44,844 bases of DNA. Source: Pseudomonadota bacterium. Lineage in GTDB: Bacteria > Pseudomonadota > Alphaproteobacteria > Acetobacterales > Acetobacteraceae. The notes under the pieces were generated by a model that worked only from the letters and a program-made list of their open reading frames with translations, did not search any database and had not been told where the DNA came from. This document shows, piece after piece, positions 19,620 through 32,092 of the stretch. The stretch lies in NCBI GenBank assembly GCA_021805545.1, contig JAJZFB010000017.1, positions 1 through 44,844 of the forward strand, in the 5' to 3' direction. Position numbers and translations under genes: made by a program. Positions within the stretch are counted from its first letter, which is position 1, and every line of letters starts with the position of its first letter.

Positions 19620-20813
19620 CTAACCCGTCACCCCGCTGCTCCGGCGCGCGCGAGTGATCACGGCCAGGAAATAGGCCAGCGCCAGGGCTTGCACCCCCGC
19701 GCCAAGGGCGCATAGCCCGCCCCAGCCGGCATGGATGAGCAGCGTGCTGGTAACCGCGCTGGCCGTGGCACCGCCCAGGAAGAAAATGGCCATGAACATG
19801 CCATTAAGGCGCGAGCGCAGCTCTGGCTGCAGCAGGTAGATGGCGCGCTGGCCAATGACGAGGCTGCACTGCACCCCGGCATCCAGCACCACGCCCGCCA
19901 GCGCCAGCAGCACCACCGCATGCGCCATAGCCCCCAGCCAGGCCAGGCCGAACGCAGCGGCGATGCCCAGCATGGCCCCCGCCGTGCCAATGTTGGAATG
20001 CCCCCGATCCGCCAGCCTGCCCGCGATGGGCGCGGCCAGCACGCCCGCCGCGCCCACCAGCGCGAATACCGCGATGCCCCGCTGCGTGTAGCCAAAATGC
20101 TGCGCGAGGTAGAGGGGCACGCCGGTCCAGAACAGCGTGAAGGAGCCGAAAGCCGCGGCCTGGTACGCCGCCCTTTGCCGCAGCACCGGGAATTTTACCG
20201 GCAAGGAGATGAGCGAGCGCAACAGCGTGCCGTAATGGTAACCGCCCTGGGGCTGGCGCCGCGGCAAGGCAACACGCAGCAGCACCGCCAGCGCCGCCAT
20301 AAGCGCGGCGGAGAGAAAGAAGACCATCCGCCAGGAGGAGATTGCGGCGATGATGGAGGCAATGGGGCGGCCGAACAAAATGCCCGCCAGCAGCCCGCTT
20401 GTAACCAGCCCCACCACCTGGCCGCGCCGCGCCTCGGGCGTTAAGTGCGCGGCCAGCGGAATGAGCATTTGCACCGCCACGGCGGTAAAGCCTGTAAGTG
20501 CTGCCGCCGCCAGCAGCACAGTGCCGTTGCGGGCCGTGGCCGTAAGCAGCAGCGCCGGAATGCAGGCGGCGATGGTTGCCACCATCAGCTTGCGGTTTTC
20601 AACCAAATCGCCCAGCGGCACCAGCAGCAGCAAACCAGCCGTGTAGCCAAGCTGCGTAAGGCTGACGATAAGGCTGGCCGCGTGCGCGCTAAGCCCCACT
20701 TGCGGGCCAATAAGCCCGATGAGCGGCTGCGTGTAGTAAATATTGGCGACGATAATGCCGCAAGACGCGGCGAGCAGCCCGACCATGGCGGGGGAAGGTG
20801 ACTTTTCTTGCAT
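19620..20813 (-). CDS. MFS transporter (YgaY-like sugar/drug exporter group)
   Basis: 397 residues from ATG 20813 with about 12 transmembrane segments. Inner-membrane secondary transporter. Features: NIYYTQPLIGLI in helix 1, the loop 2-3 motif GDLVENRKLM, and VVGLVTSGLLAGILFGRP in helix 5, as in the YgaY/NepI-type MFS group. It lies 99 bases after the ketoreductase gene of the polyene cluster on the same strand, in the place where E. coli-type clusters carry another ketosynthase gene. It could export or import a pathway-related molecule, or be an unrelated neighbour. Confidence 0.88.
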   Translation of the reverse strand: MQEKSPSPAMVGLLAASCGIIVANIYYTQPLIGLIGPQVGLSAHAASLIVSLTQLGYTAGLLLLVPLGDLVENRKLMVATIAACIPALLLTATARNGTVLLAAAALTGFTAVAVQMLIPLAAHLTPEARRGQVVGLVTSGLLAGILFGRPIASIIAAISSWRMVFFLSAALMAALAVLLRVALPRRQPQGGYHYGTLLRSLISLPVKFPVLRQRAAYQAAAFGSFTLFWTGVPLYLAQHFGYTQRGIAVFALVGAAGVLAAPIAGRLADRGHSNIGTAGAMLGIAAAFGLAWLGAMAHAVVLLALAGVVLDAGVQCSLVIGQRAIYLLQPELRSRLNGMFMAIFFLGGATASAVTSTLLIHAGWGGLCALGAGVQALALAYFLAVITRARRSSGVTG

Positions 20814-20912
20814 TGATCCTGCATGCGTATGGTTGGCGGCGCAGAGATAATGGCCGCCGCACGGCACGGCCATAGGGAGGTGCGGGTTGCACCGATGTGC
20901 CGCGCGCAGGGC

Positions 20913-21620
20913 TTATGCCATACCGCCATTGATGGAGATGATTTGCCCTGAGATGTAAGCCGCGCGCGGCGAGGCCAGGAAGGAGACAAGCTCCGCCACC
21001 TCTTCCGGCTGGCCGGCGCGCTGCATGGGCACCAGTTTGGCGATCGCCTCCTTGGGAAAAACCGTTTCCGTGGCGGGAGATTCGATGATGCCGGGCGCGA
21101 CGGTGTTCACCGTTATGCCGCGGCTGGCAAGTTCTAGCGAGAGCGATTTGCTGGCCCCGTGCAGCCCGGCCTTGGCGGCGGCATAATTGGCCTGGCCGCG
21201 ATTGCCCATGATGGCCGCGACGGAGGAGATGTTGACGATGCGCCCCCAGCGCGTGCGGATCATCGGCATGAGCAAAGGCTGGGTGACGTTGAAGAAGCCG
21301 TTGAGCGACACATCGATCACGCGCGACCATTGCGCGGCATTCATGCCCGGCATTACCCCATCGTCGTGGATGCCGGCGTTATTCACCAGAATCTGGATGG
21401 GGCCAGAGGCGAGAATTATTGCCAGGGCGGATTCGGTTTGCGCGGCATCGGTAATATCCAACCGCACGGCCTGGGCGTGGCCAATTTCTGCCGCCAGGGC
21501 CTCGGCCAGGGTGATGTTGCTGTTGGCATGGATGTAGACATAATGCCCATCCCTGGCCAAAGCGCGGGCGATGGCCGCGCCAATGGCGCCGCTGCCGCCG
21601 GTGACCAAAGCGCGCTTCAT
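20913..21620 (-). CDS. 3-oxoacyl-ACP reductase (ApeQ-like ketoreductase)
   Basis: 235 residues. Short-chain dehydrogenase of the FabG type that reduces the beta-keto group on ACP with NADPH. Cofactor motif TGGSGAIGAAIA at the N-terminus, NNAGIHDD, catalytic Ser in NISSVAAI, and the YxxxK pair in NYAAAKAG; it ends with SGQIISINGGMA. Its ATG overlaps the stop of the dehydratase gene (ATGA). Last enzyme gene of the aryl-polyene-like operon. Supports a reducing, dehydrating chain-elongation cycle dedicated to the cluster. Confidence 0.93.
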   Translation of the reverse strand: MKRALVTGGSGAIGAAIARALARDGHYVYIHANSNITLAEALAAEIGHAQAVRLDITDAAQTESALAIILASGPIQILVNNAGIHDDGVMPGMNAAQWSRVIDVSLNGFFNVTQPLLMPMIRTRWGRIVNISSVAAIMGNRGQANYAAAKAGLHGASKSLSLELASRGITVNTVAPGIIESPATETVFPKEAIAKLVPMQRAGQPEEVAELVSFLASPRAAYISGQIISINGGMA

Positions 21621-22054
21621 GGCGCCGCCCCGAACAGCACGGTGGCGCGGCCTGTAACCAGCGCGCCTGTGCCGTTTGCCACCTCGAACCGGTAACTCGC
21701 CCCGCTGGCATCGCCCAGCAGGCGGGTGGCGGTGATGTTGAGCGGGCCTGAATTTTCCAGCAGCGGCGCGGCTAAATGCACATCGCGCAGCGCGGCGAGC
21801 AGGCCTTGGGCGGGCGTGCCGCCCGGCGGGGCGGTAAGGCGCGCATGCAGCGCCATGGCCTGCGCCGCGATCTCGATGGCCGTGGCGCTGCCCAGCGTGC
21901 CACCGGCACGGCGCAGCGGGTTGGCGGGGGCGGCGTAACGGCGGGAGCGGCAGCTTATGGACGCCGCGCTCCAATCCAGCACTTCGTCCAGCAGGCACAT
22001 CTCACCCGCATGCGGGACGAGGGGCAGGATGGCATCACGGCTAAGCGCGCTCAT
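21617..22054 (-). CDS. hotdog-fold 3-hydroxyacyl-ACP dehydratase (ApeP-like)
   Basis: 145 residues. Predicted to dehydrate 3-hydroxyacyl-ACP to trans-2-enoyl-ACP during polyene chain growth. The start of the hotdog domain is LPLVPHAGEMCLLDEVLDW, whose His15 and the following MxLLD are typical of the ApeP/COG4706 group. The rest is the central helix (AIEIAAQAMALHA) and the beta-sheet. The ATG at 22054 overlaps the stop of the preceding gene; a frame to 22081 is rejected. Together with the smaller dehydratase at 29648 it would form the two-dehydratase set seen in aryl polyene synthesis. Confidence 0.85.
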   Translation of the reverse strand: MSALSRDAILPLVPHAGEMCLLDEVLDWSAASISCRSRRYAAPANPLRRAGGTLGSATAIEIAAQAMALHARLTAPPGGTPAQGLLAALRDVHLAAPLLENSGPLNITATRLLGDASGASYRFEVANGTGALVTGRATVLFGAAP

Positions 22055-22842
22055 GCTGCCACTGGAGAAATGTGAAGGCACAGGCTCATGCCCGGTAAAT
22101 AGCCCAGCGTAATTGTGTGGGCCATGCCAGAAGCCAGGGCGGCGAGCAGCGGCAGGCTTTGCGCGGCCGGGGCGGCGTTGCGCAAAGCCTCCAGGGCTGG
22201 CGGCGCAGGGGTGGGCGCGGCCTCGGGCTGCACGGCAAGTTCCAGCCGCGCCAAAGCGGCGGGGCCTTGCGTGGGAGACAGCAACAGCGCCACGCCAAAC
22301 ACCGCGCTGATGGGGCGCACGCCAGAAAGCGGGGCGGGGTACGGCACGTCATAGGCAATTAATACCACGGGCCGCGCCGTGGCCTGCGCCGCGGCCTCCA
22401 GCAGCCCGGCGGCGAAACTGCCATCATGCGCGCACAGGCTGGTGGAGGGGGCGGTGGCACCGGTGGCGATGCTCCAATAGCCCGCGGCGGCGTTGTGTAC
22501 GGAGTTATGAAAGCGCGTGGGCGAAAGCTCGCGCTGTTCCGTGGCCAGGGTGCTGAGGATGTTGTGGATGGTTTCGCCATCGCCGCCCGAGGAGGTAAAG
22601 ATTGTGGCGGCATCTTCCGGCGCGCGGCTGGCGGCGGCCAGGGCCTCGGCGCCCGTGGCCAGCGCCAGGCGGACGATTTGCGGGGCGCGGCGGCGCTCGG
22701 CGGCGGGCAGCAAGGGGCTGGGCGGCAGGTTGAGCGGCGCCCCTACATACGGCGCCTGCCCCGCCAGAATGGGCGCGCTGGCCGCCCAGCCTTCCAGCCC
22801 GGGGGCGCGCAGGCCGATGCCTTCGACGAATAAACGGATCAT
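22051..22842 (-). CDS. beta-ketoacyl synthase-like protein, chain-length-factor-type partner
   Basis: 263 residues, about two thirds the length of a full ketosynthase. Belongs to the short ketoacyl-synthase-like group found in aryl polyene clusters, thought to pair with the active ketosynthase and set chain length. The recognisable segment is TRFHNSVHNAAAGYW...TSLCAHDGSFAAGLLEA, which corresponds to the region around the ketosynthase nucleophile. The conserved downstream His residues of active enzymes (HGT and GHT) are not present, so catalysis on its own is unlikely. ATGA overlaps couple it to the ketosynthase gene before it and the dehydratase gene after it, fitting a 1:1 heterodimer. Confidence 0.82.
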   Translation of the reverse strand: MIRLFVEGIGLRAPGLEGWAASAPILAGQAPYVGAPLNLPPSPLLPAAERRRAPQIVRLALATGAEALAAASRAPEDAATIFTSSGGDGETIHNILSTLATEQRELSPTRFHNSVHNAAAGYWSIATGATAPSTSLCAHDGSFAAGLLEAAAQATARPVVLIAYDVPYPAPLSGVRPISAVFGVALLLSPTQGPAALARLELAVQPEAAPTPAPPALEALRNAAPAAQSLPLLAALASGMAHTITLGYLPGMSLCLHISPVAA

Positions 22843-24029
22843 GCGGCCCGCCCCAATATCAGGCTGCAATTCACCCCGCCGAAACCAAAAGCGTTGCTCA
22901 TGATGATACCGGGCCGCGCCGGACCGCCCGCGATGAGGTAATTGCTGGCAAATTCGGGATCTACCCGGTTTGTGTGCGGGCTGCCGGGCAAAAACCCATG
23001 GCGCAGCGCCAGCGCCGAGATGGCAGCACCCACCACGCCCGAGGCGCCAAGCGTATGGCCGGTGAAGCCCTTGCTGGAATTGCACGGCACCGCATTGCCA
23101 AACAGCCCGGCTATGGCGCGGTCCTCCGCCGCATCGCCCGCCAGCGTGGCGGTGCCGTGCAGGTTTATATAATCTATTTGTTCCGGTGCCAGCGCCGCAT
23201 CTTCCAGCGCCAGCCGCATGGCGCGGCGCGCGCCCTCGCCATCCGGATGTGGCGAGGACATATGGTAGGCATCAGCACTTTCACCCGTGCCAAGGAGCAG
23301 GGTTGTTCCGGTGCCGTGTTGCGGGCCGGGGCGCTCCACAAGCGCAAAACCGGCGGCCTCGCCTATGGAAATGCCCGAACGCGCGGCATCGAACGGGCGG
23401 CATGGGCCTTGTGCCATCACGCCCAGCGCGTGGAAGCCGAATAACGTGGTGGCGCAGAGCGTATCGGCGCCGCCGATAATGGCGGCATCGCACAGCCCGG
23501 CGGCGATAAAGCGCGCGGCGCTGGCGAACACCTTGGAGGTGGCGGCGCAAGCGGTGGAAATAACGAAGGCCGGGCCGTGCAGGCCGAGATAGGCGCGGGT
23601 GAATTGCGCGAGCGAATAGGTGTTGTGCGTGCGGGTATAGTCGAAATCGGCCGGGAGCAGGCCTTGTACGTTACGGCGCTTATAGGCCTGCTCGGCCTGC
23701 AATATGCCAGAGGTGCTGGTGCCCAGGAACAGGCCGATGCGGCTGGTGCCGTAACGGGTTTTCGCATCCTCCACAACGCCCATAAACCCGTCCTGCGCCA
23801 GGGCCAGCGCGGCGAGGCGGTTGTTGCGGCAGTCAAACGGCGCCCATTCACCGGTAAGCGGCGCATCATCGCAGGCCGTTATCTCGCCGGTCCAGGCGTC
23901 TACCGGCAGCGTATCGAACCGGCAGGGGGCGAGGCCGCTTTGCCCGGCGCGCAGGGCGGCCAGCGTGGCGGCCCGGCCCGCGCCAAGGCAGGTGATGAGC
24001 GCGAAATCGCTGAGCGCCAGGGGCGTCAT
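22839..24029 (-). CDS. beta-ketoacyl-ACP synthase (ApeO-like ketosynthase)
   Basis: 396 residues. Thiolase-fold condensing enzyme that extends the ACP-bound chain with malonyl units. Catalytic Cys161 in VISTACAATSK, His291 in NLHGTATLAGDA, Lys320 and His325 in KGFTGHTLGASG, and the C-terminal glycine-rich NAFGFGGVNCSLIL. All catalytic residues are therefore present, unlike its shorter partner encoded next. Only one full ketosynthase gene is in this cluster, whereas E. coli-type clusters carry two as I recall. Its start overlaps the stop of the 398-residue unknown gene. Confidence 0.93.
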   Translation of the reverse strand: MTPLALSDFALITCLGAGRAATLAALRAGQSGLAPCRFDTLPVDAWTGEITACDDAPLTGEWAPFDCRNNRLAALALAQDGFMGVVEDAKTRYGTSRIGLFLGTSTSGILQAEQAYKRRNVQGLLPADFDYTRTHNTYSLAQFTRAYLGLHGPAFVISTACAATSKVFASAARFIAAGLCDAAIIGGADTLCATTLFGFHALGVMAQGPCRPFDAARSGISIGEAAGFALVERPGPQHGTGTTLLLGTGESADAYHMSSPHPDGEGARRAMRLALEDAALAPEQIDYINLHGTATLAGDAAEDRAIAGLFGNAVPCNSSKGFTGHTLGASGVVGAAISALALRHGFLPGSPHTNRVDPEFASNYLIAGGPARPGIIMSNAFGFGGVNCSLILGRAA

Positions 24030-25222
24030 GCCGCACCCTCCAGCCTGGCCAGCATCTCCGCCGTGCTTGCGGCGGCACGGGCAATATGGGCCTCGTACTG
24101 TGCCTGGAAGGCGGCGCGCGCGCGGCTCATGCGCCGGGGCCGCCAGGCCTGGGCGGTGCTGGCATAACGGGCGGCGAAATAGCGCAGATTGGCGGCGAGA
24201 TTGGTCGAGGTCGGGCTGGCGAAAAAGCGTTTGAACGCGAACCGGTACGGTCCAAAAACGGGATTATCGTAGAAAATCAGCCGTAATTTATCCGCATCGT
24301 AAATCTCGTTGGCGGCAATGGCGGGCACAATGCCGGCCAGCACGCCCGGGGTTGCCGGCAGCGTGCCATGGCGCAGCAGGCTTTCGCGCGCGGCTTTGTC
24401 CTCGTACAGCGCTTCAGCATCTTCCAGCGGCAGATCATTACCACGGCGCAGCAAATCCACCAGCGCGTTTTTGGGCACGGGGAAGTGAAACGCGGCGAAC
24501 ATGCGCCATTGGCCGGTGTGCCACGGCGCCCAAACACCAGCCGCGGCCAGCGCGTTGCGGGCCACATGCACGCAATTATCGTTGAACACGTTCCAGCGGT
24601 ACAACCGATCGCCGCGCGCATAGGGGGTGTTTATCTCGTTTAAGTAATCAATAACCGCCCGCATGCGCGGTGCATCCAGCGGGATGCGCGCGCAATAGGC
24701 ATCGCGGCCAAATTGCAGCGCGTAATCGGTGGCGATGGAAATCTCGTATTTGAAATCTTCATCGCTCATGCCAGCGGGTTTGGTGGAAAAGTAAGATTTG
24801 TGGAAGGCCACGCCATCCAGGCAGCCGCGCGCCTTGGCTTGCGCCTGGGTGCGGGCATAGGCTTCATGCGTCAGCGCCTCGCCGGGTGCCAACGCGCCGC
24901 GTTGCAAAAAATCGCGCCCTTCCATGCCCACCCAGTTGGCGTTGCTGTAATGCGCGTTCACGCTTATGCCCACGCCATGCGCCGCCGGGTTTTCATCGGC
25001 CAGGCGCAGCCTGTGCGGGCCGCCATCGCGCCGCACACCGTTAAGGTAGAGCAGCGCGTGCCCGCCTATGCCGCTTTGCAGGGGCACGCCCATGCCGGGC
25101 TTTTTACGTAGCTCCGAGAGCGCGCGAAATTCCGCGTAATAGGGGTAAAACGCCGCGTATTCCGTGCTGGCGGCGTGGTTTGTGCCCATTTCTCCCCGTC
25201 CTGCGTGAATCGTGGCGGCCAC
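24026..25222 (-). CDS. uncharacterised 398-aa protein of the polyene cluster, possible permuted papain-like fold
   Basis: 398 residues from a GTG at 25222 with AGGAG ten bases upstream; an in-frame ATG at 25189 is the alternative but its purine-rich site is only one or two bases away. I cannot assign a family. Visible features: a conserved-looking GIGGHALLYLNGV (His55), then GISVNAHYSNANWVGMEG, and FNDNCVHVARNALA (Asn216-Cys217) placed before a helix. A His preceding an NC pair recalls circularly permuted papain-like domains (NlpC/P60-related, DUF4105/Lnb). No signal peptide or membrane helix is evident. The C-terminal 100 residues are Ala/Arg-rich and helical. It is coupled to the ketosynthase gene by ATGA and follows the alpha/beta hydrolase gene, in the slot where E. 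coli-type clusters have the DUF3261 lipoprotein. A role in chain release, transfer or lipid attachment is only inference. Confidence 0.75.
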   Translation of the reverse strand: MAATIHAGRGEMGTNHAASTEYAAFYPYYAEFRALSELRKKPGMGVPLQSGIGGHALLYLNGVRRDGGPHRLRLADENPAAHGVGISVNAHYSNANWVGMEGRDFLQRGALAPGEALTHEAYARTQAQAKARGCLDGVAFHKSYFSTKPAGMSDEDFKYEISIATDYALQFGRDAYCARIPLDAPRMRAVIDYLNEINTPYARGDRLYRWNVFNDNCVHVARNALAAAGVWAPWHTGQWRMFAAFHFPVPKNALVDLLRRGNDLPLEDAEALYEDKAARESLLRHGTLPATPGVLAGIVPAIAANEIYDADKLRLIFYDNPVFGPYRFAFKRFFASPTSTNLAANLRYFAARYASTAQAWRPRRMSRARAAFQAQYEAHIARAAASTAEMLARLEGAA

Positions 25223-25237
25223 TATAGCATTGCTCCT

Positions 25238-25882
25238 TCAGCCGTCCAGCAGCGCCAGCATTTGCTGCCACAGGGCGCGCCAGCTTGGCCAGTCATGCCC
25301 GCCCGGCACGGCGGCCACGCGCGCGGGCGGCAGGCAGGCGGCGAGCATTGCATGCGCGGCGGCAAAACGGTCTTGCGTGGCGTAACCGAGGTAAAGTGCC
25401 GGCTGGCCCGCGCCGGCGGCCACATAAACTTGCAGCCAGGCCAGGAGATTTTGTTCCGGATTCGTGGCACAGCTTTGCGCGGCGCGCCACGGCGCAATGC
25501 CACCAGCGCGGGCAAGCTCGGCCACCGTGCCTTTGGTGCCCAGGAACGGCGCAATGAGAAATATGTTTTCAAGATATTGCTGATGCACCGTGGCATAAAG
25601 CAATGCCCCCATCGCGCCGAGCGAGATGCCGAGCAGCCAGATGCGCTTTATGCCGCGCGCCAAGGCGGGCGCTACCACCTGCTCATGCAACGCAGCCGTC
25701 ACGCCATTTTCCAGGTACAACGCAATATCTGGCGCGGCGGCGATAACCGCTACCCCGCGCCGCGCCTGCAGGGCGGCCACCATGCCTTGGGCCGCGAAAT
25801 CTTCCGCCGTAATGCCCGCGCCGGGCAGCATGATAAGCAGCGTATCCGCCCCGGCGCAGGGGTAATGCAGGGTTTTTATCAT
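25238..25882 (-). CDS. alpha/beta hydrolase in the polyene cluster
   Basis: 214 residues. Serine hydrolase with the nucleophile in LLGISLGAMG (Ser87), an oxyanion-region LPGAGITAED near the N-terminus, an Asp in GYATQDRF and the terminal His in VPGGHDWPSW. No signal peptide, so cytoplasmic. Likely a thioesterase or esterase: it could free the finished aryl-polyene chain from ACP or the ester from its lipid carrier. It overlaps the exporter gene by ATGA and is not part of the E. coli-type gene set I remember. The longer reading up to 26884 runs antisense-like through the exporter gene and is rejected. Confidence 0.85.
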   Translation of the reverse strand: MIKTLHYPCAGADTLLIMLPGAGITAEDFAAQGMVAALQARRGVAVIAAAPDIALYLENGVTAALHEQVVAPALARGIKRIWLLGISLGAMGALLYATVHQQYLENIFLIAPFLGTKGTVAELARAGGIAPWRAAQSCATNPEQNLLAWLQVYVAAGAGQPALYLGYATQDRFAAAHAMLAACLPPARVAAVPGGHDWPSWRALWQQMLALLDG

Positions 25883-28179
25883 GCGCTTCGCCTTGTGCTG
25901 AGCAAGGCGCTGCACAGCAGGACCAGAAAAGTGCCAATGGCGACGGTGCGGCCAATATCGTGCAGCACGGGGATGCGCGAGAAGGAGAGCAGCCCGTAAG
26001 CCGCCACGGTGCAAAAATTGGCCAGCACAATGGCGGCGGCGGCACGCGGCCATTCCGCCGTGCCGGGACGGGTAGTGGCAAAAAACAGGCAGTAATTGGA
26101 GCCAATGGCGATGATGAGCAGAAACCCCGCCACCATGAAGATGGAGAGCTTGGCACCCCCCAGCGTGAGCAGTGCGGCGGTAAGCAGCACAGCCACAGCC
26201 AGCGGTGCCGCCACAGCCAGCACAGCCCGCCAGGCACGCAGGCCCAGCCAGAGCAGCAGCAGAATGGCCAAGCTGCCCGCAACGGCCAATGTTACAGCCT
26301 GGGCCTGGAAGTTTTGCAGCAAGCCCGTGGCAGCCTGGCCAAGATTGGTAAACTGCGCGCCCACGGCGGCAAGGGCATGGGCAATGGCCGCGGGATCGCG
26401 CACGCCAGAGAGTGGCGCCATGACCATCCAGCCCCGCCCGGCCTTGTTGAGCAGCGAGGAGACTTGCAGCGCCAGCGCCGGGGGCAAGCTGGCTTGGGTG
26501 AGCAGCGGCGCGGCGCGGGCCGCCGCTACGGCGGTGAAAAAGGGCTGGAATGCCTGGATATTGAACGGCAGCCCCGCGGCGGCCTGGGTAAAGCGCGCCC
26601 GCAGCGTGGCATCGTCCGGCAAGGCCTGTTGGCGCGCGCGCTGGGTTTGCGCGCTGGGCAGAATGGCGCTGGGCAGGCTGTAACCGCCCAGCTTGCCTGC
26701 CGCCACCAAAGCATCCAGCACCGGCGCCACGGCCTGGCTGCGCTGCAAGCCCTGCTGCACGCTGGCCGCCGGAATAAGCGCGAAATAACGCTGGCCATGC
26801 AGGCCAAGCCCGGCGCGCAAACTGGCATCCAGCCGCTGCTGCGCGGCCGGTATGGGGCTGAGGTCGAGCAGGTTGGAATCCCACATGCCGCCACGGTGCA
26901 GGGCAAGGGCGGCGATGGCGGCAAGGGCCGCCAACCCCAGAACAGCGTGGCCCGTGCGTTTATGGCGCTGCAACATTGCGATGGGCCGGGCCAAGGGCGC
27001 CGCCCCAACGGCAAAAAAATGCCCCGGCATAAGCAGCGGCAGCACAAAGCGCGTGGTGGCGGCAGCCCCCGCCAGCCCGGCGATGGAAAACAGCCCAAGC
27101 TGCGCGAAGCCGATGAAGCTGGAGAACAGCATGGCGCAGAACCCGGCCATGGAGGTAAGCGCCCCCAGCCGCAGCGTGGGCCAGATGCGCGCGAGCGCCG
27201 CAGCCGGGGCCTCGCCCTGCTTTGCCTGGGTGAAGAGGTAAACCGCGTAATCCAGCGATTCACCCATGAGCGTGACGCCAAAACCCAGCGTGATGCCATG
27301 CACGAAGCCAAATGCCAGCGACACGGCGGCGGTAGCCGCCAGCCCGCCGGTGAGTATAGGCAGCAGCCCCAGCAGCAGCATGCGCGGCGAGCGGTAGGCA
27401 AACAGCAGCAGCGCCGCAGCGCCCAGAAGTGCGAGCGCCGAGAGGCGGGAGACATCCTGCCTGGTGGTATCGCGGCTCTGCACGGCGAACACGCCAGGGC
27501 CGCTCATTTGCAGCATTGCGCCCCCTGCCCCTGGCACGGCCTGTAATGCCTTGGCGAAAGCGGCGCGCACGGCATCTTGCGCCCGCTGCTGGGCATCCAG
27601 GTTAAAACCAGGCGCTTTTGTGTGAACCAGCAGCAGGGCGGCGCTGCCATTGGGCTGCATCCACACGCCATCGCGCATGGCGGGGGCGGGCATGGAAAAA
27701 CCGTTAAGCAAAGCCTGCATCGCGCCCGTGGGATCGGCGGACAGGCCTTGGCCTACCGCCAGCCCAAGCGGCGAGCTGAGCTGGGCCAGATCGTTCCGTA
27801 AAGCGTTACGCAAGCCAGCGGTGGATAAATCCGGCGCGGTGAGCAGATAGCGGTTATTCCAGAAATAATCCTGCATGCCGGTAAACGAACCCGGGCCGCC
27901 ATTCAGCACGTCGAGAAATTCTGGCTGTTGCCGCAGGCGCCCGGCGAGGCTCTGGCTGAGTGCTGCCAAAACCGGCGCGGGCGCGCCGGAGAGCGAGAGC
28001 AGCAGAATATGCGCGGCAGCACCGCCATTGACCTGCTCCACCAGCAGGCGCTGGGCGGGGCTGCCGGCGCGGGGCAGAAAATCGCCCATATCCGTGCGGT
28101 AGCTGGTGCGCGCGGCAATTACGGCGCAGCCGGCAAGCAGCGCCAGCCACAAGCCGAGAATAAGCGGCTTACGGCGCAT
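25879..28179 (-). CDS. MMPL/RND-type exporter (ApeM-like)
   Basis: 766 residues with the RND/MMPL double layout: one helix, a large periplasmic loop (about residues 30-230), five or six helices, a second loop (about 420-610) and a second helix bundle. Predicted to be an inner-membrane, proton-driven exporter of the lipid-linked aryl polyene toward the outer membrane. Helix-rich blocks such as LGFGVTLMGESLDYAVYLFTQ contain the Asp expected in the proton path. It is the standard exporter of aryl polyene clusters, followed here by the hydrolase gene. Its start overlaps the LolA-like gene by 11 bases. Confidence 0.9.
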   Translation of the reverse strand: MRRKPLILGLWLALLAGCAVIAARTSYRTDMGDFLPRAGSPAQRLLVEQVNGGAAAHILLLSLSGAPAPVLAALSQSLAGRLRQQPEFLDVLNGGPGSFTGMQDYFWNNRYLLTAPDLSTAGLRNALRNDLAQLSSPLGLAVGQGLSADPTGAMQALLNGFSMPAPAMRDGVWMQPNGSAALLLVHTKAPGFNLDAQQRAQDAVRAAFAKALQAVPGAGGAMLQMSGPGVFAVQSRDTTRQDVSRLSALALLGAAALLLFAYRSPRMLLLGLLPILTGGLAATAAVSLAFGFVHGITLGFGVTLMGESLDYAVYLFTQAKQGEAPAAALARIWPTLRLGALTSMAGFCAMLFSSFIGFAQLGLFSIAGLAGAAATTRFVLPLLMPGHFFAVGAAPLARPIAMLQRHKRTGHAVLGLAALAAIAALALHRGGMWDSNLLDLSPIPAAQQRLDASLRAGLGLHGQRYFALIPAASVQQGLQRSQAVAPVLDALVAAGKLGGYSLPSAILPSAQTQRARQQALPDDATLRARFTQAAAGLPFNIQAFQPFFTAVAAARAAPLLTQASLPPALALQVSSLLNKAGRGWMVMAPLSGVRDPAAIAHALAAVGAQFTNLGQAATGLLQNFQAQAVTLAVAGSLAILLLLWLGLRAWRAVLAVAAPLAVAVLLTAALLTLGGAKLSIFMVAGFLLIIAIGSNYCLFFATTRPGTAEWPRAAAAIVLANFCTVAAYGLLSFSRIPVLHDIGRTVAIGTFLVLLCSALLSTRRSA

Positions 28180-28759
28180 GGGCCCTGGCGGGGCGGATGC
28201 TCATGCGGGATTCGGCGCCATCGGTGCTAAGTGTATCAATAGACGTAACCTGCCCCTGGCTGCCGCCAATGGCGACGGATTGCACAAACGCGGCCAAGGC
28301 GGGGTTGCGCGGCACCAGCCGCAACCGCCAGGCGGCGGCGCTGCCGGTAAGGGTAAGGCTGTAATAGCGTTGCAGCGCGGGCAGATCGCCCGCCAGCGTG
28401 CCGCGTATGGCCTCCACCAGCCCGGCGATACGCGGGTCTTCATCCAGCGCGAACTGGCGCGTGGCCCCGCCCTCCATCAGCGTTACCTGGCCGTTGCGCA
28501 GTGTGAACAGCGAGGATACGGGGGTTGCGGTCTGCTTGCTGAGATAACCCGGCGCCACATAGGTAAGCGTGCCCATGCTGATAAGCGGGGCGCTGAGCAC
28601 GGGCGATGTATCACGCTCGGTAAAGCTGGCCGTGGCGCTGCGGGTAGCGGCAAGGGCGGCCATAAGCTGGGGCAGGCCCCAGCCGGGTTTGGCCTGGGCG
28701 GTTAGGGCCAGCAGCCCAAGCAAAACCGCGCGGCGGCGCAGGCTAAGCCCAGAAATCAT
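28169..28759 (-). CDS. LolA-like periplasmic lipid carrier (ApeL-like)
   Basis: 196 residues. An N-terminal signal peptide (RRRAVLLGLLALTAQA) with cleavage near AQA-KPG predicts a periplasmic protein. The mature part has the LolA-type opening (LPQLMAALAATRSATASFTE) and short beta strands of the half-barrel. In aryl polyene clusters this protein is thought to ferry the lipid-like product across the periplasm with the MMPL exporter. It overlaps the acyltransferase gene by 17 bases and the exporter gene by 11. Confidence 0.85.
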   Translation of the reverse strand: MISGLSLRRRAVLLGLLALTAQAKPGWGLPQLMAALAATRSATASFTERDTSPVLSAPLISMGTLTYVAPGYLSKQTATPVSSLFTLRNGQVTLMEGGATRQFALDEDPRIAGLVEAIRGTLAGDLPALQRYYSLTLTGSAAAWRLRLVPRNPALAAFVQSVAIGGSQGQVTSIDTLSTDGAESRMSIRPARAHAP

Positions 28760-29651
28760 GGAAATTAAACCAGTTATACGGCGCCTCGCGGCAATAATGC
28801 TCTACCCGCGCCACGTAGCGGGACATGGTCTCCTCAATCCAGCCCTGCATATTGGCCGGGCGCGCGGCCGGGGCCGCGGCCAGCAGCTCGAAATGCAGCT
28901 CGTAGCGCCTGCCGCCGCGGTACAGCCCGGCCATGAACACCACCGGGCGCTGCAGCATGGCGGCCACACGGAACGGGCCTTGCGGGAAGGCTGCCGGGGC
29001 ACCGAGAAAATCCATGCGCCGCATGTCGTGGCCATCGAGGTTACGGTCCGCCAGCACGCCGATGAAATGGCCCGCGCGCAAGCGCTCCGCCACGGCGATG
29101 AGCGAGCCGGCCCGGCCCAGCCCGATGACCTCGGTGGCGAGGCTGGGGTTGATGGCGGCCAGGGCGGCGCGGATTTTCTGCGCGTTTTCCTCGTACATCA
29201 GCAGCGAAATGGGCAAATCGCGCCTGCGCCGCCGGCCAAGGGCGCGCGCCACCTCAAAACTGCCGAGATGCGCGCCAAAGAGCAGGCAGCCGCCGCCCTG
29301 GGCCTCGATGGCGTGCAGAATTTCGTCGCCATGCACCTCGATCTCGAACGCAGCGCTCTCATCGTTGAGGAGAAAAACGCGGTCCAGCAGGCAGCGGGCA
29401 AAAGTGAGAAAATGGGTGAAACGCTGGGCAAAGCCAGGGGCGGCGCCCCGCACGCGGGCAAGGTAGGCGCGCGAGGCGCGGCTGGCGGCGGGGCATAAGA
29501 AGCTGAAATACAGCACCAGCGGGTAGAGCAATAGCCGGGCGGCGGGGCGGCCCAGGCACCGCGCCACCCATACCCCAAAGCGCAGCAACGGCAGCGAGCC
29601 GCGCTCTGGCCTGCGTGCCCATTCCTGCAAGCGGGCGGCTTCCTGCGTCAT
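28743..29651 (-). CDS. lipid A biosynthesis-type acyltransferase (ApeK-like)
   Basis: 302 residues. Member of the LpxL/HtrB lysophospholipid acyltransferase-like family; in this setting it should join the aryl polyene chain to a lipid or sugar-lipid core. The HX4E motif is GAHLGSFEVA. FIGVLADRN and FPQGPFRVAAM form the rest of the acceptor site. An N-terminal hydrophobic stretch (LLLYPLVLYFSFL) suggests inner-membrane anchoring. It follows the small dehydratase gene by ATGA; the glycosyltransferase usually found at this point is absent. Confidence 0.88.
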   Translation of the reverse strand: MTQEAARLQEWARRPERGSLPLLRFGVWVARCLGRPAARLLLYPLVLYFSFLCPAASRASRAYLARVRGAAPGFAQRFTHFLTFARCLLDRVFLLNDESAAFEIEVHGDEILHAIEAQGGGCLLFGAHLGSFEVARALGRRRRRDLPISLLMYEENAQKIRAALAAINPSLATEVIGLGRAGSLIAVAERLRAGHFIGVLADRNLDGHDMRRMDFLGAPAAFPQGPFRVAAMLQRPVVFMAGLYRGGRRYELHFELLAAAPAARPANMQGWIEETMSRYVARVEHYCREAPYNWFNFHDFWA

Positions 29652-29944
29652 GTGGTGCCCTCAGGGGCCAGCGTGCCTGAAAGGATAAGCCCCGCGGCGG
29701 CGGTGCATTCAAAACGGTATGGCGCGCCCTCGCCACCCTGCCAGCGTAGCAGCAGCGCCGTGCCATGGGCGGCGGGGCAAAGAAATTTTACACCACGCAG
29801 GGCAAGCGGAAACGGCGGGCCGATGGCGGCCAGCACGGCATCGAGCAGCAGCGCGCCGGGGATGATGGGCCGGCCAGGGAAATGCCCGGCGGCGCTGGGG
29901 TGGTCCGCAGGTATGTGCAAACGCCGCTCGTGCCAGATGCTCAT
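29648..29944 (-). CDS. small FabZ-like 3-hydroxyacyl-ACP dehydratase (ApeI-like)
   Basis: 98 residues, a single hotdog domain. The FabZ-type active-site loop GHFPGRPIIPGALLLD (His21) is well conserved. Likely heterodimer partner or second dehydratase in the elongation cycle. It begins at ATG 29944, overlapping the ligase stop, and ends overlapping the acyltransferase start, both as ATGA. Its short length agrees with the E. coli ApeI type rather than with FabZ (about 150 residues). Confidence 0.88.
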   Translation of the reverse strand: MSIWHERRLHIPADHPSAAGHFPGRPIIPGALLLDAVLAAIGPPFPLALRGVKFLCPAAHGTALLLRWQGGEGAPYRFECTAAAGLILSGTLAPEGTT

Positions 29945-31248
29945 GGCGCCGCCTGGGCAATAAGGCGCAGCAAATCCGCCCTTGGCAGCTTGCCCAGCGC
30001 GTTGCGCGGCAATGCCTCCACCAGCAGGAGTGGACGCGGCAGAAAAGCGGGGTCCAGGCGCTGGCGCAAAGCGGCCCGCAGGCTGGCGCGTGTATGGCCG
30101 GGTGCCACTGCCAGCACGGCCAGCCGGGCCACGCCGCCTTTTGGCGCCTCGCCCATGATGAACACGCCGTCGCGCACGCCGGGGATGGAGAGAAGCTGAT
30201 GGTTGAGAAAAGCGAGCGAACTGCGCTTGCCCGCCACATCTATAAGGTCCGCATTGCGGCCGCCAAGGGTGAAATGCGCCGGGCCGGTAAGGGTAATGGC
30301 ATCGTGCAGCAGGTTTGGCCCGGCCACGGCGGGGCCGGAGACCCAGGTGCCGAGCGCGTCCTGATGCAGCGCGGCGCCTTCGAAGCAATGCCACTCCTGC
30401 TCGTGCGCGGTGCGGCGCGTGGCAATCTGCCCGGCCTCGGTGCAGCCGTAAATTTCGATGAGCCGGGCGCCAAAACGGGCCTCGGCCTCCGCCGCCAGCG
30501 CTGGCGCGAGCGGCGCCGTGGCGGAGAGGATGAGGCTGGCGGGCGGCAGCGCATCTGGCTCGCTCAGCAATGCGCGCAGATGCACCGGCGTGGTGACCAG
30601 GATGCGCGGCGGGGGCGCGGCCGCCAGCGCGGCGCGTATATCCGCCGGGTAAAGCGGCCAGCCGGATTCGATGGTGAGCCCGTGCAGCAGGCCAAACAGG
30701 ATGATGGACTCCAGCCCATAGGAATGCTGATGCGGCACCGTGGCGACGATACTGCCGCCCGCAAGCTGTGTGTACGCCCCCAGCCGCGTGGCGGCGGCTT
30801 GCGCGCTATGGCGCAGCGTGCCCCAGTTTTTGGCGGCGGGCTGGGGTTTGCCGGTGGAACCTGACGTAAACAGGATGACGGCGGGCTGCTCATCATCCAG
30901 CGCGAACGGGTCTGGCGCCGGGCCGGAATACGGTAAATCCTGCGGGTAGGCCAAGCCCGGCAGGTCTGGCATGGCGCCATCGGCAAGGGCGTATAAATCC
31001 GGGTAGTCCCGCGCCAGGGCGGCCAGGGCGGCGGGCACGTTGGCGGCGGGCAGCAGCGTAACCTGGCGGCGGCGCAGCGCGGCGGCGAGCCCGACGGCGA
31101 AGCGGTAACGGTCCGTGCAGAGATTGACCATATGCCCGGCAGCGGGCAGGCGCGCGGCCAGGGCGGCTGCATCGCGCCGGAACCGCGCCGGCGCCACCGC
31201 CTGGCCGGCATGGCGGGCAATGGCGGCAGTGAAAACGGCCTGGCTCAC
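29941..31248 (-). CDS. AMP-forming acyl/aryl-ACP synthetase (ApeH-like)
   Basis: 435 residues from a GTG at 31248, which has GGAG ten bases upstream and lies four bases after the COG4648 gene's stop. ANL-superfamily adenylating enzyme expected to activate the aromatic starter acid (a hydroxybenzoic- or cinnamic-type acid in known clusters) and load it on the ACP. The P-loop-like motif is ILFTSGSTGKPQPAAK, the A5-type motif is EIYGCTEAGQIATR, and the catalytic Lys of the C-terminal domain lies in RNALGKLPR. Shorter than general fatty acyl-CoA ligases, as usual for this group. A reading up to 31482 would overlap the membrane protein gene and is rejected. Confidence 0.87.
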   Translation of the reverse strand: MSQAVFTAAIARHAGQAVAPARFRRDAAALAARLPAAGHMVNLCTDRYRFAVGLAAALRRRQVTLLPAANVPAALAALARDYPDLYALADGAMPDLPGLAYPQDLPYSGPAPDPFALDDEQPAVILFTSGSTGKPQPAAKNWGTLRHSAQAAATRLGAYTQLAGGSIVATVPHQHSYGLESIILFGLLHGLTIESGWPLYPADIRAALAAAPPPRILVTTPVHLRALLSEPDALPPASLILSATAPLAPALAAEAEARFGARLIEIYGCTEAGQIATRRTAHEQEWHCFEGAALHQDALGTWVSGPAVAGPNLLHDAITLTGPAHFTLGGRNADLIDVAGKRSSLAFLNHQLLSIPGVRDGVFIMGEAPKGGVARLAVLAVAPGHTRASLRAALRQRLDPAFLPRPLLLVEALPRNALGKLPRADLLRLIAQAAP

Positions 31249-31252
31249 GCGG

Positions 31253-31810
31253 TTATGGCTCCAGGGCCGGTTTAACGGCGCGGGGCATGGCCTCGCCCAC
31301 CATGCGCATGATAACGGCGAGGGATTCGCGTGGCGGGTTTTCCAGCACGCGCCGCCGCACCGCGTATTCCACCGCGAACATGGCGGCGACCAGCGGAAGA
31401 TCGAGAATATTGACGAAGAAGGACCACACCACCAGCGGGGCGAAGCAGAACAGCGCGATGGATGTGATGAGCTGCGCGGCAAAGAACAGCACCCAGGCGA
31501 TGGTGACCTTGCGCGTATAGGCCGTGGTTTCGGGCGTCAGCCCGTGCATGCGCCGCACCATGGCGGTGATGAGCGGCTCGCGCCCTGGCCGCAGCGTGAG
31601 GGCAAACACGGTGAGCAGGCTGGCGTAAATGCCCCAATGCGTCAGCGCCGAGACGCTGACGAAGCCCAGCTTGGCCACCGCGCCCAGCCCGGCATGCAGC
31701 CCCAGCGGCACATGCCGGGTGAACATGATGACGAGATGCGACAGAACAGGCACCACGAGAATGGCCAGGATGCTGACGGACGGCGCGCTTTTGCCCGGTG
31801 CGGCGCGCAT
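31253..31810 (-). CDS. COG4648-type inner-membrane protein (ApeG-like)
   Basis: 185 residues with four or five predicted transmembrane segments (SILAILVVPVLSHLVIMF, WGIYASLLTVFALTL, IAWVLFFAAQLITSIALFCF, LVVWSFFVNILDLPLVAAMF). Conserved in aryl polyene and xanthomonadin-type clusters, function not established; an accessory role in membrane transfer or complex assembly is likely. It begins immediately after the ACP stop (TAA then ATG) and is followed by the ligase gene. Confidence 0.85.
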   Translation of the reverse strand: MRAAPGKSAPSVSILAILVVPVLSHLVIMFTRHVPLGLHAGLGAVAKLGFVSVSALTHWGIYASLLTVFALTLRPGREPLITAMVRRMHGLTPETTAYTRKVTIAWVLFFAAQLITSIALFCFAPLVVWSFFVNILDLPLVAAMFAVEYAVRRRVLENPPRESLAVIMRMVGEAMPRAVKPALEP

Positions 31811-32092
31811 TTATACCTGCCGATGCCCCTGGATGTAGGCGGACAGGCTGCGCAGGGAGTGGAAAATCTCGGTGTTATTCCCCGCATCGGCGCGCAATTT
31901 AACACCATAACGCTGCGAGACGGTGAGTGAGATTTCCAGCATGTCTATCGAGTCGAGCCCCAGCCCTTCATCGCCGTACAGCAACCCGTCCGGGCCGATT
32001 TCATCTGGCGCCAGGTCGAGATTCAGGGTTTCAACAATAAGTTGTGCCAGAGCGGCTTCTTCGGCGGTTTGAGTCATGCTGGCGGCGGTCAT
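31811..32092 (-). CDS. acyl carrier protein (ApeF-like)
   Basis: 93 residues. The phosphopantetheine attachment site is GLGLDSIDMLE (Ser48), inside the aryl-polyene subtype signature LDSIDMLEISLTVSQRYGV. The C-terminal SLRSLSAYIQGH also recalls ApeF-type carriers. This is the only ACP in the cluster; E. coli-type clusters have two. The start may be the ATG at 32092 or the one at 32077; neither has a clear ribosome site. As first gene it marks the upstream edge of the operon, and a promoter should lie just above it, but none is convincing. Confidence 0.88.
   Translation of the reverse strand: MTAASMTQTAEEAALAQLIVETLNLDLAPDEIGPDGLLYGDEGLGLDSIDMLEISLTVSQRYGVKLRADAGNNTEIFHSLRSLSAYIQGHRQV

What the first reader, a model, noticed from the sequence alone, without database searches (positions are those of the whole stretch)
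20913..32092. A compact, reduced aryl-polyene-like operon in an alphaproteobacterium
Twelve minus-strand genes in 11.2 kb are coupled by ATGA or longer overlaps, or gaps of 15 bases or less. Gene order (ACP, COG4648, ligase, small dehydratase, acyltransferase, LolA, MMPL, ... KS, CLF-like, dehydratase, ketoreductase) is colinear with the E. coli-type APE cluster as I remember it. It lacks the second ACP, the glycosyltransferase, the DUF3261 lipoprotein and the second ketosynthase, and gains two genes. This points to a distinct subclass with a different head group, lipid attachment or export.
Basis: partly seen in the sequence, partly recalled or inferred. Interest (0 to 1): 0.75.

Follow-up and report, generated by a model that had tools for sequence, protein, structure and literature searches.

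The report
Aryl-polyene pigment operon with added acyltransferase-like gene
A relative of the acid-loving bacterium Acidocella carries a compact operon related to the one that makes aryl polyenes (yellow, membrane-bound protective pigments), and inside it sits an unstudied enzyme-like protein that travels with these pigment genes in its bacterial family and has lost its export signal in this lineage.

Summary
The operon is real: 13 (not 12) minus-strand genes at 20913-32092, joined by overlaps or gaps of 15 nt or less. Eleven match E. coli ApeE, G, H, I, J (acyltransferase half), L, M, O, C, P and Q. KS and CLF group with ApeO/ApeC; the KS lies apart from FabF. This reduced layout, without ApeK, N or R, is the usual one among the Acetobacteraceae sampled, where aryl-polyene clusters are already reported (PMC8776678). 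So "distinct subclass" holds, but the operon is not singular. The glycosyltransferase is not lost: it lies on another contig beside a flavin halogenase-like gene; both flank the operon in close relatives.

Not found in print by my searches is the inserted pair: a serine hydrolase and an uncharacterised protein, here "LNBL". LNBL occurs in 29 of 200 family genomes; 27 have a full aryl-polyene KS, two a KS cut by contig ends. It has an invariant His and Cys, and weak but consistent signs of being a permuted NlpC/P60 (Lnb/TseH-like) lipid acyltransferase. In 52 of 77 copies it looks like a lipoprotein; the Acidocella clade, window included, has lost the signal and mostly a cysteine pair, but keeps the His and Cys. 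Activity is untested.

The parts
31811..32092 (-). Acyl carrier protein (ApeE type)
   Evidence: PF00550 2.6e-6; NF006617 over its cut-off; ApeE 45% identity; GLDSID serine kept
31253..31810 (-). COG4648-like membrane protein (ApeG)
   Evidence: ApeG phmmer 1.2e-9; no Pfam hit
29941..31248 (-). AMP-forming acyl/aryl-ACP ligase (ApeH)
   Evidence: PF00501 6.1e-21; ApeH 2e-26
29648..29944 (-). Small hot-dog dehydratase DH1 (ApeI)
   Evidence: PF07977 3.3e-5; ApeI phmmer 1.1e-5
28743..29651 (-). LpxL-type acyltransferase (C-terminal half of ApeJ, without the GT2 half)
   Evidence: PF03279 2.3e-11; ApeJ residues 250-549, 4e-41
28169..28759 (-). LolA-like carrier (ApeL)
   Evidence: PF19574 5.4e-18; ApeL phmmer 6.5e-5
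25879..28179 (-). MMPL/RND exporter (ApeM)
   Evidence: PF03176 1.8e-10; ApeM 2.7e-26
25238..25882 (-). ABH: alpha/beta serine hydrolase without a visible signal peptide, no counterpart in the E. coli cluster
   Evidence: PF00756 1.1e-5; S87 31/32, D171 32/32, H196 32/32; no Ape match
24026..25222 (-). LNBL: APE-linked His/Cys protein, Lnb/NlpC-P60-like, signal-less here (start GTG 25222 or ATG 25189)
22839..24029 (-). Ketosynthase (ApeO)
   Evidence: NF006618 1.8e-149 over cut-off; best PDB 6qsp_A, 7f28_B; C/H/H positions kept (roles recalled); tree
22051..22842 (-). Chain-length factor (ApeC)
   Evidence: PF13723 1.1e-29; PDB 7f28_A, 6qsp_B; ApeC 1.3e-12
21617..22054 (-). Dehydratase DH2 (ApeP)
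   Evidence: ApeP phmmer 4.3e-6; no Pfam hit
20913..21620 (-). Ketoreductase (ApeQ/FabG)
   Evidence: PF13561 4.9e-53; ApeQ 8.6e-61

Best explanation
This is a reduced aryl-polyene (APE) operon of the Acetobacteraceae type in an Acidocella-like bacterium. Inferred pathway: the ligase loads an aromatic acid on the single ACP; KS/CLF extends it with malonyl units; KR, DH1 and DH2 turn each keto group into a double bond; the LpxL-type acyltransferase moves the finished polyenoyl chain from ACP to a sugar-lipid acceptor, probably made with the unlinked GT2; MMPL and LolA carry the product towards the outer membrane. KS/CLF does all condensations, since no ApeR is present. The two inserted genes act on acyl bonds: ABH as a cytoplasmic thioesterase/esterase that edits or releases chains, and LNBL as a permuted NlpC/P60-type (Lnb/TseH-like) acyltransferase or hydrolase that completes or remodels the polyene lipid. 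In most relatives LNBL works outside the cytoplasm as a lipoprotein; in the Acidocella clade the same chemistry has moved to the cytoplasm. Shown: gene content, matches to Ape proteins, co-occurrence, loss of the signal and of cysteines, invariant His/Cys, predicted fold. Inferred: every enzymatic step, the aromatic starter, the acceptor, and the roles of LNBL and ABH.
For: Eleven 1:1 matches to the E. coli Ape proteins. The nearest solved relatives of KS and CLF are the two partners of the same two entries, 6qsp and 7f28, which I recall as the ApeO-ApeC complexes. KS tree: 28 reduced-type KS form one clade (99/98) beside the full-type ApeO, apart from ApeR and the genome's own FabF-like KS (100/100). 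LNBL: 29 of 200 family genomes, 27 with an APE KS over cut-off, the other two with a KS cut by contig ends; of 14 genomes whose LNBL stretch shows no APE operon, 13 have the KS over cut-off and one a cut KS. In the genus, KS in 21 of 38, LNBL in 21 of 38, both in 20. In two genomes the APE-type ACP sits beside LNBL, 0.5 Mb from the rest. H44 and C206 in 77 of 77 copies. Lnb_N 0.0068, hhalign P 0.017 and 0.044, Foldseek to TseH prob 0.94 for an exported homologue; TseH and DUF4105/Lnb are described as permuted NlpC/P60 lipid enzymes (PMC12994826, passages). Signal-less copies: 25, in one clade, 100/100.
Against: No product is known for these clusters; PMC8776678 (passages) calls them likely to make undescribed products. 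Chorismate lyase PF04345 was not found in the genome, so the source of the aromatic acid is open (the family rang in only 1 of 14 control genomes, so the test is weak). Lnb_N is below Pfam's cut-off (16.4 of 22.2 bits; 3 of 25 members match at E<=1); no PDB sequence matched the LNBL profile; the hhalign probabilities are low (1-3%); the window protein's own model has no PDB match (best E 1.8), and the TseH match of the homologue is E 0.022. LNBL is absent from 44 of the 71 family genomes with an APE KS, so it is not required for APE in general. Four genomes have LNBL together with ApeN, so it is not a plain substitute for ApeN. The co-occurrence test is not corrected for kinship, and many genomes are drafts.
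Confidence: 0.6

Rival explanations
1. The operon makes a non-aryl or differently started polyene acid (for instance a fatty-acid-started or halogenated chain), so it is APE-like in machinery only.
For: No chorismate lyase hit; the ligase is far below the cut-offs of the named aryl-CoA ligase models and only 28% identical to ApeH; the unlinked partner is a flavin halogenase/monooxygenase-like protein.
Against: ApeH, ApeO, ApeC and ApeE counterparts are all present; an enzyme of another family could supply the aromatic acid.
Confidence: 0.25
2. LNBL is an ordinary lipoprotein or lipid maturation enzyme that only rides with the cluster, with no role in the polyene.
For: In 14 of 29 family genomes no APE operon lies in the fetched stretch around LNBL (11 of these 14 have the KS on another contig of a draft); the weak fold and family signs suggest a general lipid or lipoprotein acyl enzyme.
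Against: All 29 LNBL genomes have an APE KS, whole or cut; 20 of 21 LNBL genomes in the genus, the other a fragment at a contig end; in-operon position with a 4-nt overlap to the KS.
Confidence: 0.2
3. LNBL takes the place of ApeN, the LolB-like receiver at the outer membrane.
For: ApeN (DUF3261) is in only 6 of 200 genomes; in this operon LNBL sits where E. coli has ApeN, between MMPL and KS (with ABH), and it is mostly a lipoprotein.
Against: Four genomes have both; 42 of 71 APE genomes have neither; the predicted structure is largely helical, unlike the LolB barrel as I recall it; the window copy has no signal peptide.
Confidence: 0.1
4. The cluster is a decayed remnant that makes nothing.
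For: GT2 and the halogenase-like gene have been parted from it; 17 of 38 genus genomes have no APE KS over the cut-off.
Against: All 13 frames are open; the KS catalytic positions and the ACP serine are kept; the full order is conserved in 15 named loci.
Confidence: 0.05

Closest known systems
E. coli CFT073 APE cluster (apeA-R; PMC8253772, section 4 part 1)
   Same: Counterparts of ApeE, G, H, I, J (AT half), L, M, O, C, P, Q, mostly in the same order
   Different: No ApeA, B, D, F, K, N, R in the operon; the GT2 half of ApeJ corresponds to a separate gene on another contig; CLF follows the KS; ABH and LNBL inserted between M and O
Acetobacteraceae aryl-polyene clusters reported by genome mining (PMC8776678, passages)
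   Same: Same family of bacteria; APE clusters in 19 of 43 acidophilic and 28 of 96 acetous type strains; 'probable halogenase' and hypothetical genes noted there
   Different: The passages that I read do not describe the LNBL/ABH pair, the signal loss or the reduced gene set; figures and supplements were not seen
Lnb (DUF4105) lipoprotein N-acyltransferase and TseH, permuted NlpC/P60 enzymes (PMC12994826, passages)
   Same: His before Cys, here at the start of a strand and of a helix; most members look like lipoproteins; weak profile and fold matches
   Different: No match over Pfam's cut-off; about 390 residues with its own helical parts; linked to APE genes; signal lost in the Acidocella clade

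Membership tests
Aryl-polyene biosynthetic cluster | KS of the ApeO group | tested here: met
   NF006618 498 bits over 407; tree; ApeO best of the E. coli set; PDB 6qsp_A best
Aryl-polyene biosynthetic cluster | CLF of the ApeC group beside it | tested here: met
   no CLF tree was made
Aryl-polyene biosynthetic cluster | Ligase, ACP, KR, two dehydratases | tested here: met
   the dehydratase matches are weak
E. coli-type aryl-polyene cluster | Initiating KS ApeR, thioesterase ApeK, LolB-like ApeN | tested here: not met
   No ApeK, N or R in the operon. In the genome, a second cluster KS and DUF3261 were sought and not found; a genome-wide search for ApeK was not made
Aryl-polyene biosynthetic cluster | Product is an aryl polyene | not testable with these tools
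   needs extraction and LC-MS
Lnb / DUF4105 (PF13387) | Match over the Pfam gathering score | tested here: not met
   16.4 bits against 22.2; 3 of 25 members match at E<=1
Permuted NlpC/P60 superfamily | Catalytic His on a strand, then Cys at the N-terminus of a helix | tested here: inconclusive
   H44 starts strand 44-50, C206 starts helix 206-216, both 77/77; their distance in the model was not available
Permuted NlpC/P60 superfamily | Fold match to a solved member | tested here: inconclusive
   Exported homologue (L117): TseH 6v98, E 0.022, prob 0.94, TM 0.23/0.41; window protein: none

The most novel reading that the evidence does not exclude
LNBL is a new, aryl-polyene-dedicated branch of the permuted NlpC/P60 acyltransferases. 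It transfers or remodels the polyene acyl chain on its lipid carrier. In the Acidocella clade this step switched compartment, from an envelope lipoprotein to a cytosolic enzyme paired with a serine hydrolase, shedding its lipobox and, in most copies, a cysteine pair, but keeping the His and Cys.
Probability: 0.3. Interest if true: 0.65.

Novelty: new variant of a known kind. Interest (0 to 1): 0.48.

Why it matters
[quoted passage not shown] A gene that follows the APE KS so closely in one bacterial family, with invariant His and Cys and signs of a changed compartment, is a concrete handle on that step. The natural contrast (52 lipoprotein-like copies, 25 signal-less ones) makes the side of the membrane on which the step happens testable.

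Tried and rejected
Rejected: (1) 'The KS is housekeeping': refuted. (2) 'The GT is lost': refuted at genome level. (3) 'LNBL simply replaces ApeN': weakened, since four genomes have both and 42 of 71 APE genomes have neither. (4) 'The missing signal peptide is a start-site error': rejected, because in the window the in-frame stop upstream of LNBL is the stop of ABH (same frame by the coordinates), and 25 copies show it in one clade. My first automatic split called 27 copies signal-less; L100 and L116 were mis-called through start choice (their lipoboxes are visible) and were moved before the counts; the tree was labelled with the uncorrected split. Lipoprotein signals were judged by pattern and eye, not by a signal-peptide program. 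(5) While checking this report I dropped a statement that the six E. coli-type clusters have the fused GT-acyltransferase: one search shows the fusion only in E. coli and in one of the six (L193).

Led nowhere: PDB sequence search with the LNBL profile (none at E<=1); BFVD fold search (best E 4.6e-3, TM 0.26, uncharacterised giant-virus proteins, not followed); promoter/terminator scan (one promoter-like site against 2.8 expected); chorismate lyase. Paper searches; 'aryl polyene' with 'DUF4105' gave 0. Rows dropped: A2 for folding held 64 of 79 LNBL rows (78 named loci plus window), A5 45 of 78 named loci; the LNBL tree used 77 of 79 rows, fragments L137 and L139 dropped; the KS tree used KS genes longer than 350 residues and over 200 bits from 35 chosen loci (L062 gave none) plus the genome's FabF-like KS. 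The A1 alignment held 25 of 30 LNBL rows.
Full report
What is there. The stretch 20913-32092 holds 13 minus-strand genes with 12 junctions of overlap or gap of at most 15 nt. Pfam and NCBIfam give ACP, AMP ligase, FabA-like dehydratase, LpxL-type acyltransferase, LolA-like, MMPL, alpha/beta hydrolase (ABH), a protein with a weak Lnb_N match (LNBL), KS, CLF-type KS and FabG-like KR; COG4648 and the second dehydratase have no Pfam hit but match ApeG and ApeP directly. GC is 66.7% against 62.1% and 63.0% on the two sides.

What it is. Against the 18 Ape proteins of E. coli CFT073 (fetched, order and functions as in PMC8253772, section 4 part 1), 11 genes have a best partner: E, G, H, I, J (only its acyltransferase half), L, M, O, C, P, Q; the matches to I, L and P are weak. 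Nothing matches A, B, D, K, N or the GT2 half of J; F and R are matched only as second-best by the ACP and KS; ABH and LNBL match nothing. The KS has Cys and two His where ApeO has them. Its nearest solved relatives are 6qsp_A and 7f28_B, those of the CLF 7f28_A and 6qsp_B, which I recall as ApeO-ApeC complexes. In a tree of 41 KS the reduced-type KS form one clade (28 rows, 99/98) next to full-type ApeO, and ApeR and the genome's own FabF-like KS lie across a 100/100 branch.

How common. Among 200 genomes of the GTDB family, 71 have a KS over the NF006618 cut-off. DUF3261 (ApeN) is in 6 of 200. The clusters of those six hold ApeK, ApeN and a GT2, and five show ApeR (the sixth, L197, is cut by a contig end); ApeK and ApeN were found nowhere else among the loci examined, E. 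coli apart. The GT2 is fused to the acyltransferase, as in E. coli, in only one of the six. The reduced type is thus the usual one. APE clusters in this family are already in print, in 19 of 43 acidophilic and 28 of 96 acetous type strains, with a 'probable halogenase' and undescribed products (PMC8776678, passages). In the window's own genus (nearest named relatives are Acidocella) 21 of 38 genomes have the KS.

The glycosyltransferase. Of the 24 named loci of the window's LNBL clade, 17 carry a GT2 on the other strand just after KR, with a flavin halogenase/monooxygenase-like gene next to it; the other seven end before KR, within it or just after it. In the window's genome an MFS gene (19620-20873) follows KR instead, and the pair sits at the end of contig C36 (GT2 of 235 aa, 77% identical to that of L063, 72%). 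The flavin protein is cut by the contig end; it matches Trp_halogenase over the cut-off but also other flavin families, so 'halogenase' is a label. The genome has three PP-binding hits. PF00109 finds, besides the window KS, one whole FabF-like KS and four short matches of 33-68 model positions that I did not identify.

The inserted pair. In 40 of 79 loci (78 named plus the window) LNBL lies in the operon, with MMPL just upstream and/or KS just downstream; ABH is present in 32 of these 40 and in 0 of the 58 APE loci L140-L197. Of the eight without ABH, L075 and L081 begin close to LNBL; in the others it is absent or was not detected. All sampled embedded KS fall in one clade of 11 rows (99/99). 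In several acetic acid bacteria LNBL lies beside the operon, next to the halogenase-like gene. ABH keeps Ser87, Asp171 and His196 (31/32, 32/32, 32/32) and shows no signal peptide by eye.

LNBL and APE go together. LNBL is in 29 of 200 family genomes. Of these 27 have an APE KS over the cut-off; in G017 and G161 the KS is cut by contig ends. Fisher's test gives 3e-12, without correction for kinship. In 14 genomes the fetched stretch around LNBL shows no APE operon; 13 of them have the KS over the cut-off, in three on the same contig far away and in the rest on another contig, and the other one is G161. In the genus, 20 of 21 KS genomes have LNBL. The exception, G394, has a second KS at E. coli-type spacing (inferred from the distance alone); the one LNBL without KS, G418, is a fragment at a contig end. 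In G100 and G157 an APE-type ACP stands beside LNBL, half a megabase from the rest of the cluster. Against a required role: 44 of 71 APE genomes have no LNBL.

What LNBL may be. It has no Pfam match over a cut-off; Lnb_N is reached at 0.0068, and 3 of 25 members match it at E<=1. Profile comparison with DUF4105 proteins gives P 0.017 and 0.044 with low probability, both aligning the same Asn-Cys motif. Both AlphaFold2 models are confident (pLDDT 93.5 and 92.3). The window model has no PDB neighbour; the exported homologue from L117 has one, TseH, at E 0.022, prob 0.94. TseH and DUF4105 (the lipoprotein N-acyltransferase Lnb) are described as permuted NlpC/P60 proteins, a group tied to acyl groups and lipids, with conserved His and Cys (PMC12994826, passages). 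LNBL has an invariant His at the start of a strand and an invariant Cys at the start of a helix. I take this as likely but unproven kinship.

A change of compartment. In 52 of 77 copies the N-terminus looks like a lipoprotein signal with Cys; in 25, the window included, it does not (L100 and L116 corrected by eye). The 25 are one side of a 100/100 branch. Cys at positions 53 and 166 is present in 52 of 52 lipoprotein-like copies, but in 2 and 4 of 25 signal-less ones (the window keeps Cys166 and has lost Cys53); Cys22 and Cys64 mostly stay (21 and 24 of 25; both lost in the window); His44 and Cys206 stay in all 77. That these cysteines pair as disulfides is inference.

Judgement. A sound observation, a partly right reading, and a known kind of system with an unstudied, APE-linked component. 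The mechanism of the polyene synthase rests on established knowledge of the Ape proteins; that of LNBL and ABH is inference.

Noticed in passing
window 19620-20873 (-): An MFS transporter gene follows KR where close relatives carry the convergent GT2/halogenase-like pair; in this genome the pair is at the end of contig C36.
   Followed up: partly
L050, L051 (G157, G100): An APE-type ACP stands beside LNBL about 0.5 Mb away from the main APE operon, in which no ACP was detected.
   Followed up: partly
L106 and L109 (Siccirubricoccus sp. G192, both ends of one 5.48-Mb contig): Near-identical APE-LNBL loci at the two contig ends, the second with genes in pieces; probably an uncut overlap of a circular contig.
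   Followed up: no
G394:C51:10172-13737: One genome of the window's genus has two KS genes at the spacing of the E. coli-type cluster and no LNBL.
   Followed up: partly
L145 7362-10613: One open frame of 1084 residues matches both the acyltransferase and the MMPL profile, a possible fusion.
   Followed up: no
L089 (Asaia astilbis): The ligase is in three pieces and LNBL is signal-less and divergent; possible decay or sequencing errors.
   Followed up: no
L129, L074: MAG contigs labelled Myxococcales and Acidithiobacillus carry LNBL loci of this family; possible transfer or mis-binning.
   Followed up: no
window 20913-32092: The operon is about 4 points richer in GC than its flanks and is patchy in the genus (21 of 38), which may point to transfer.
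   Followed up: no
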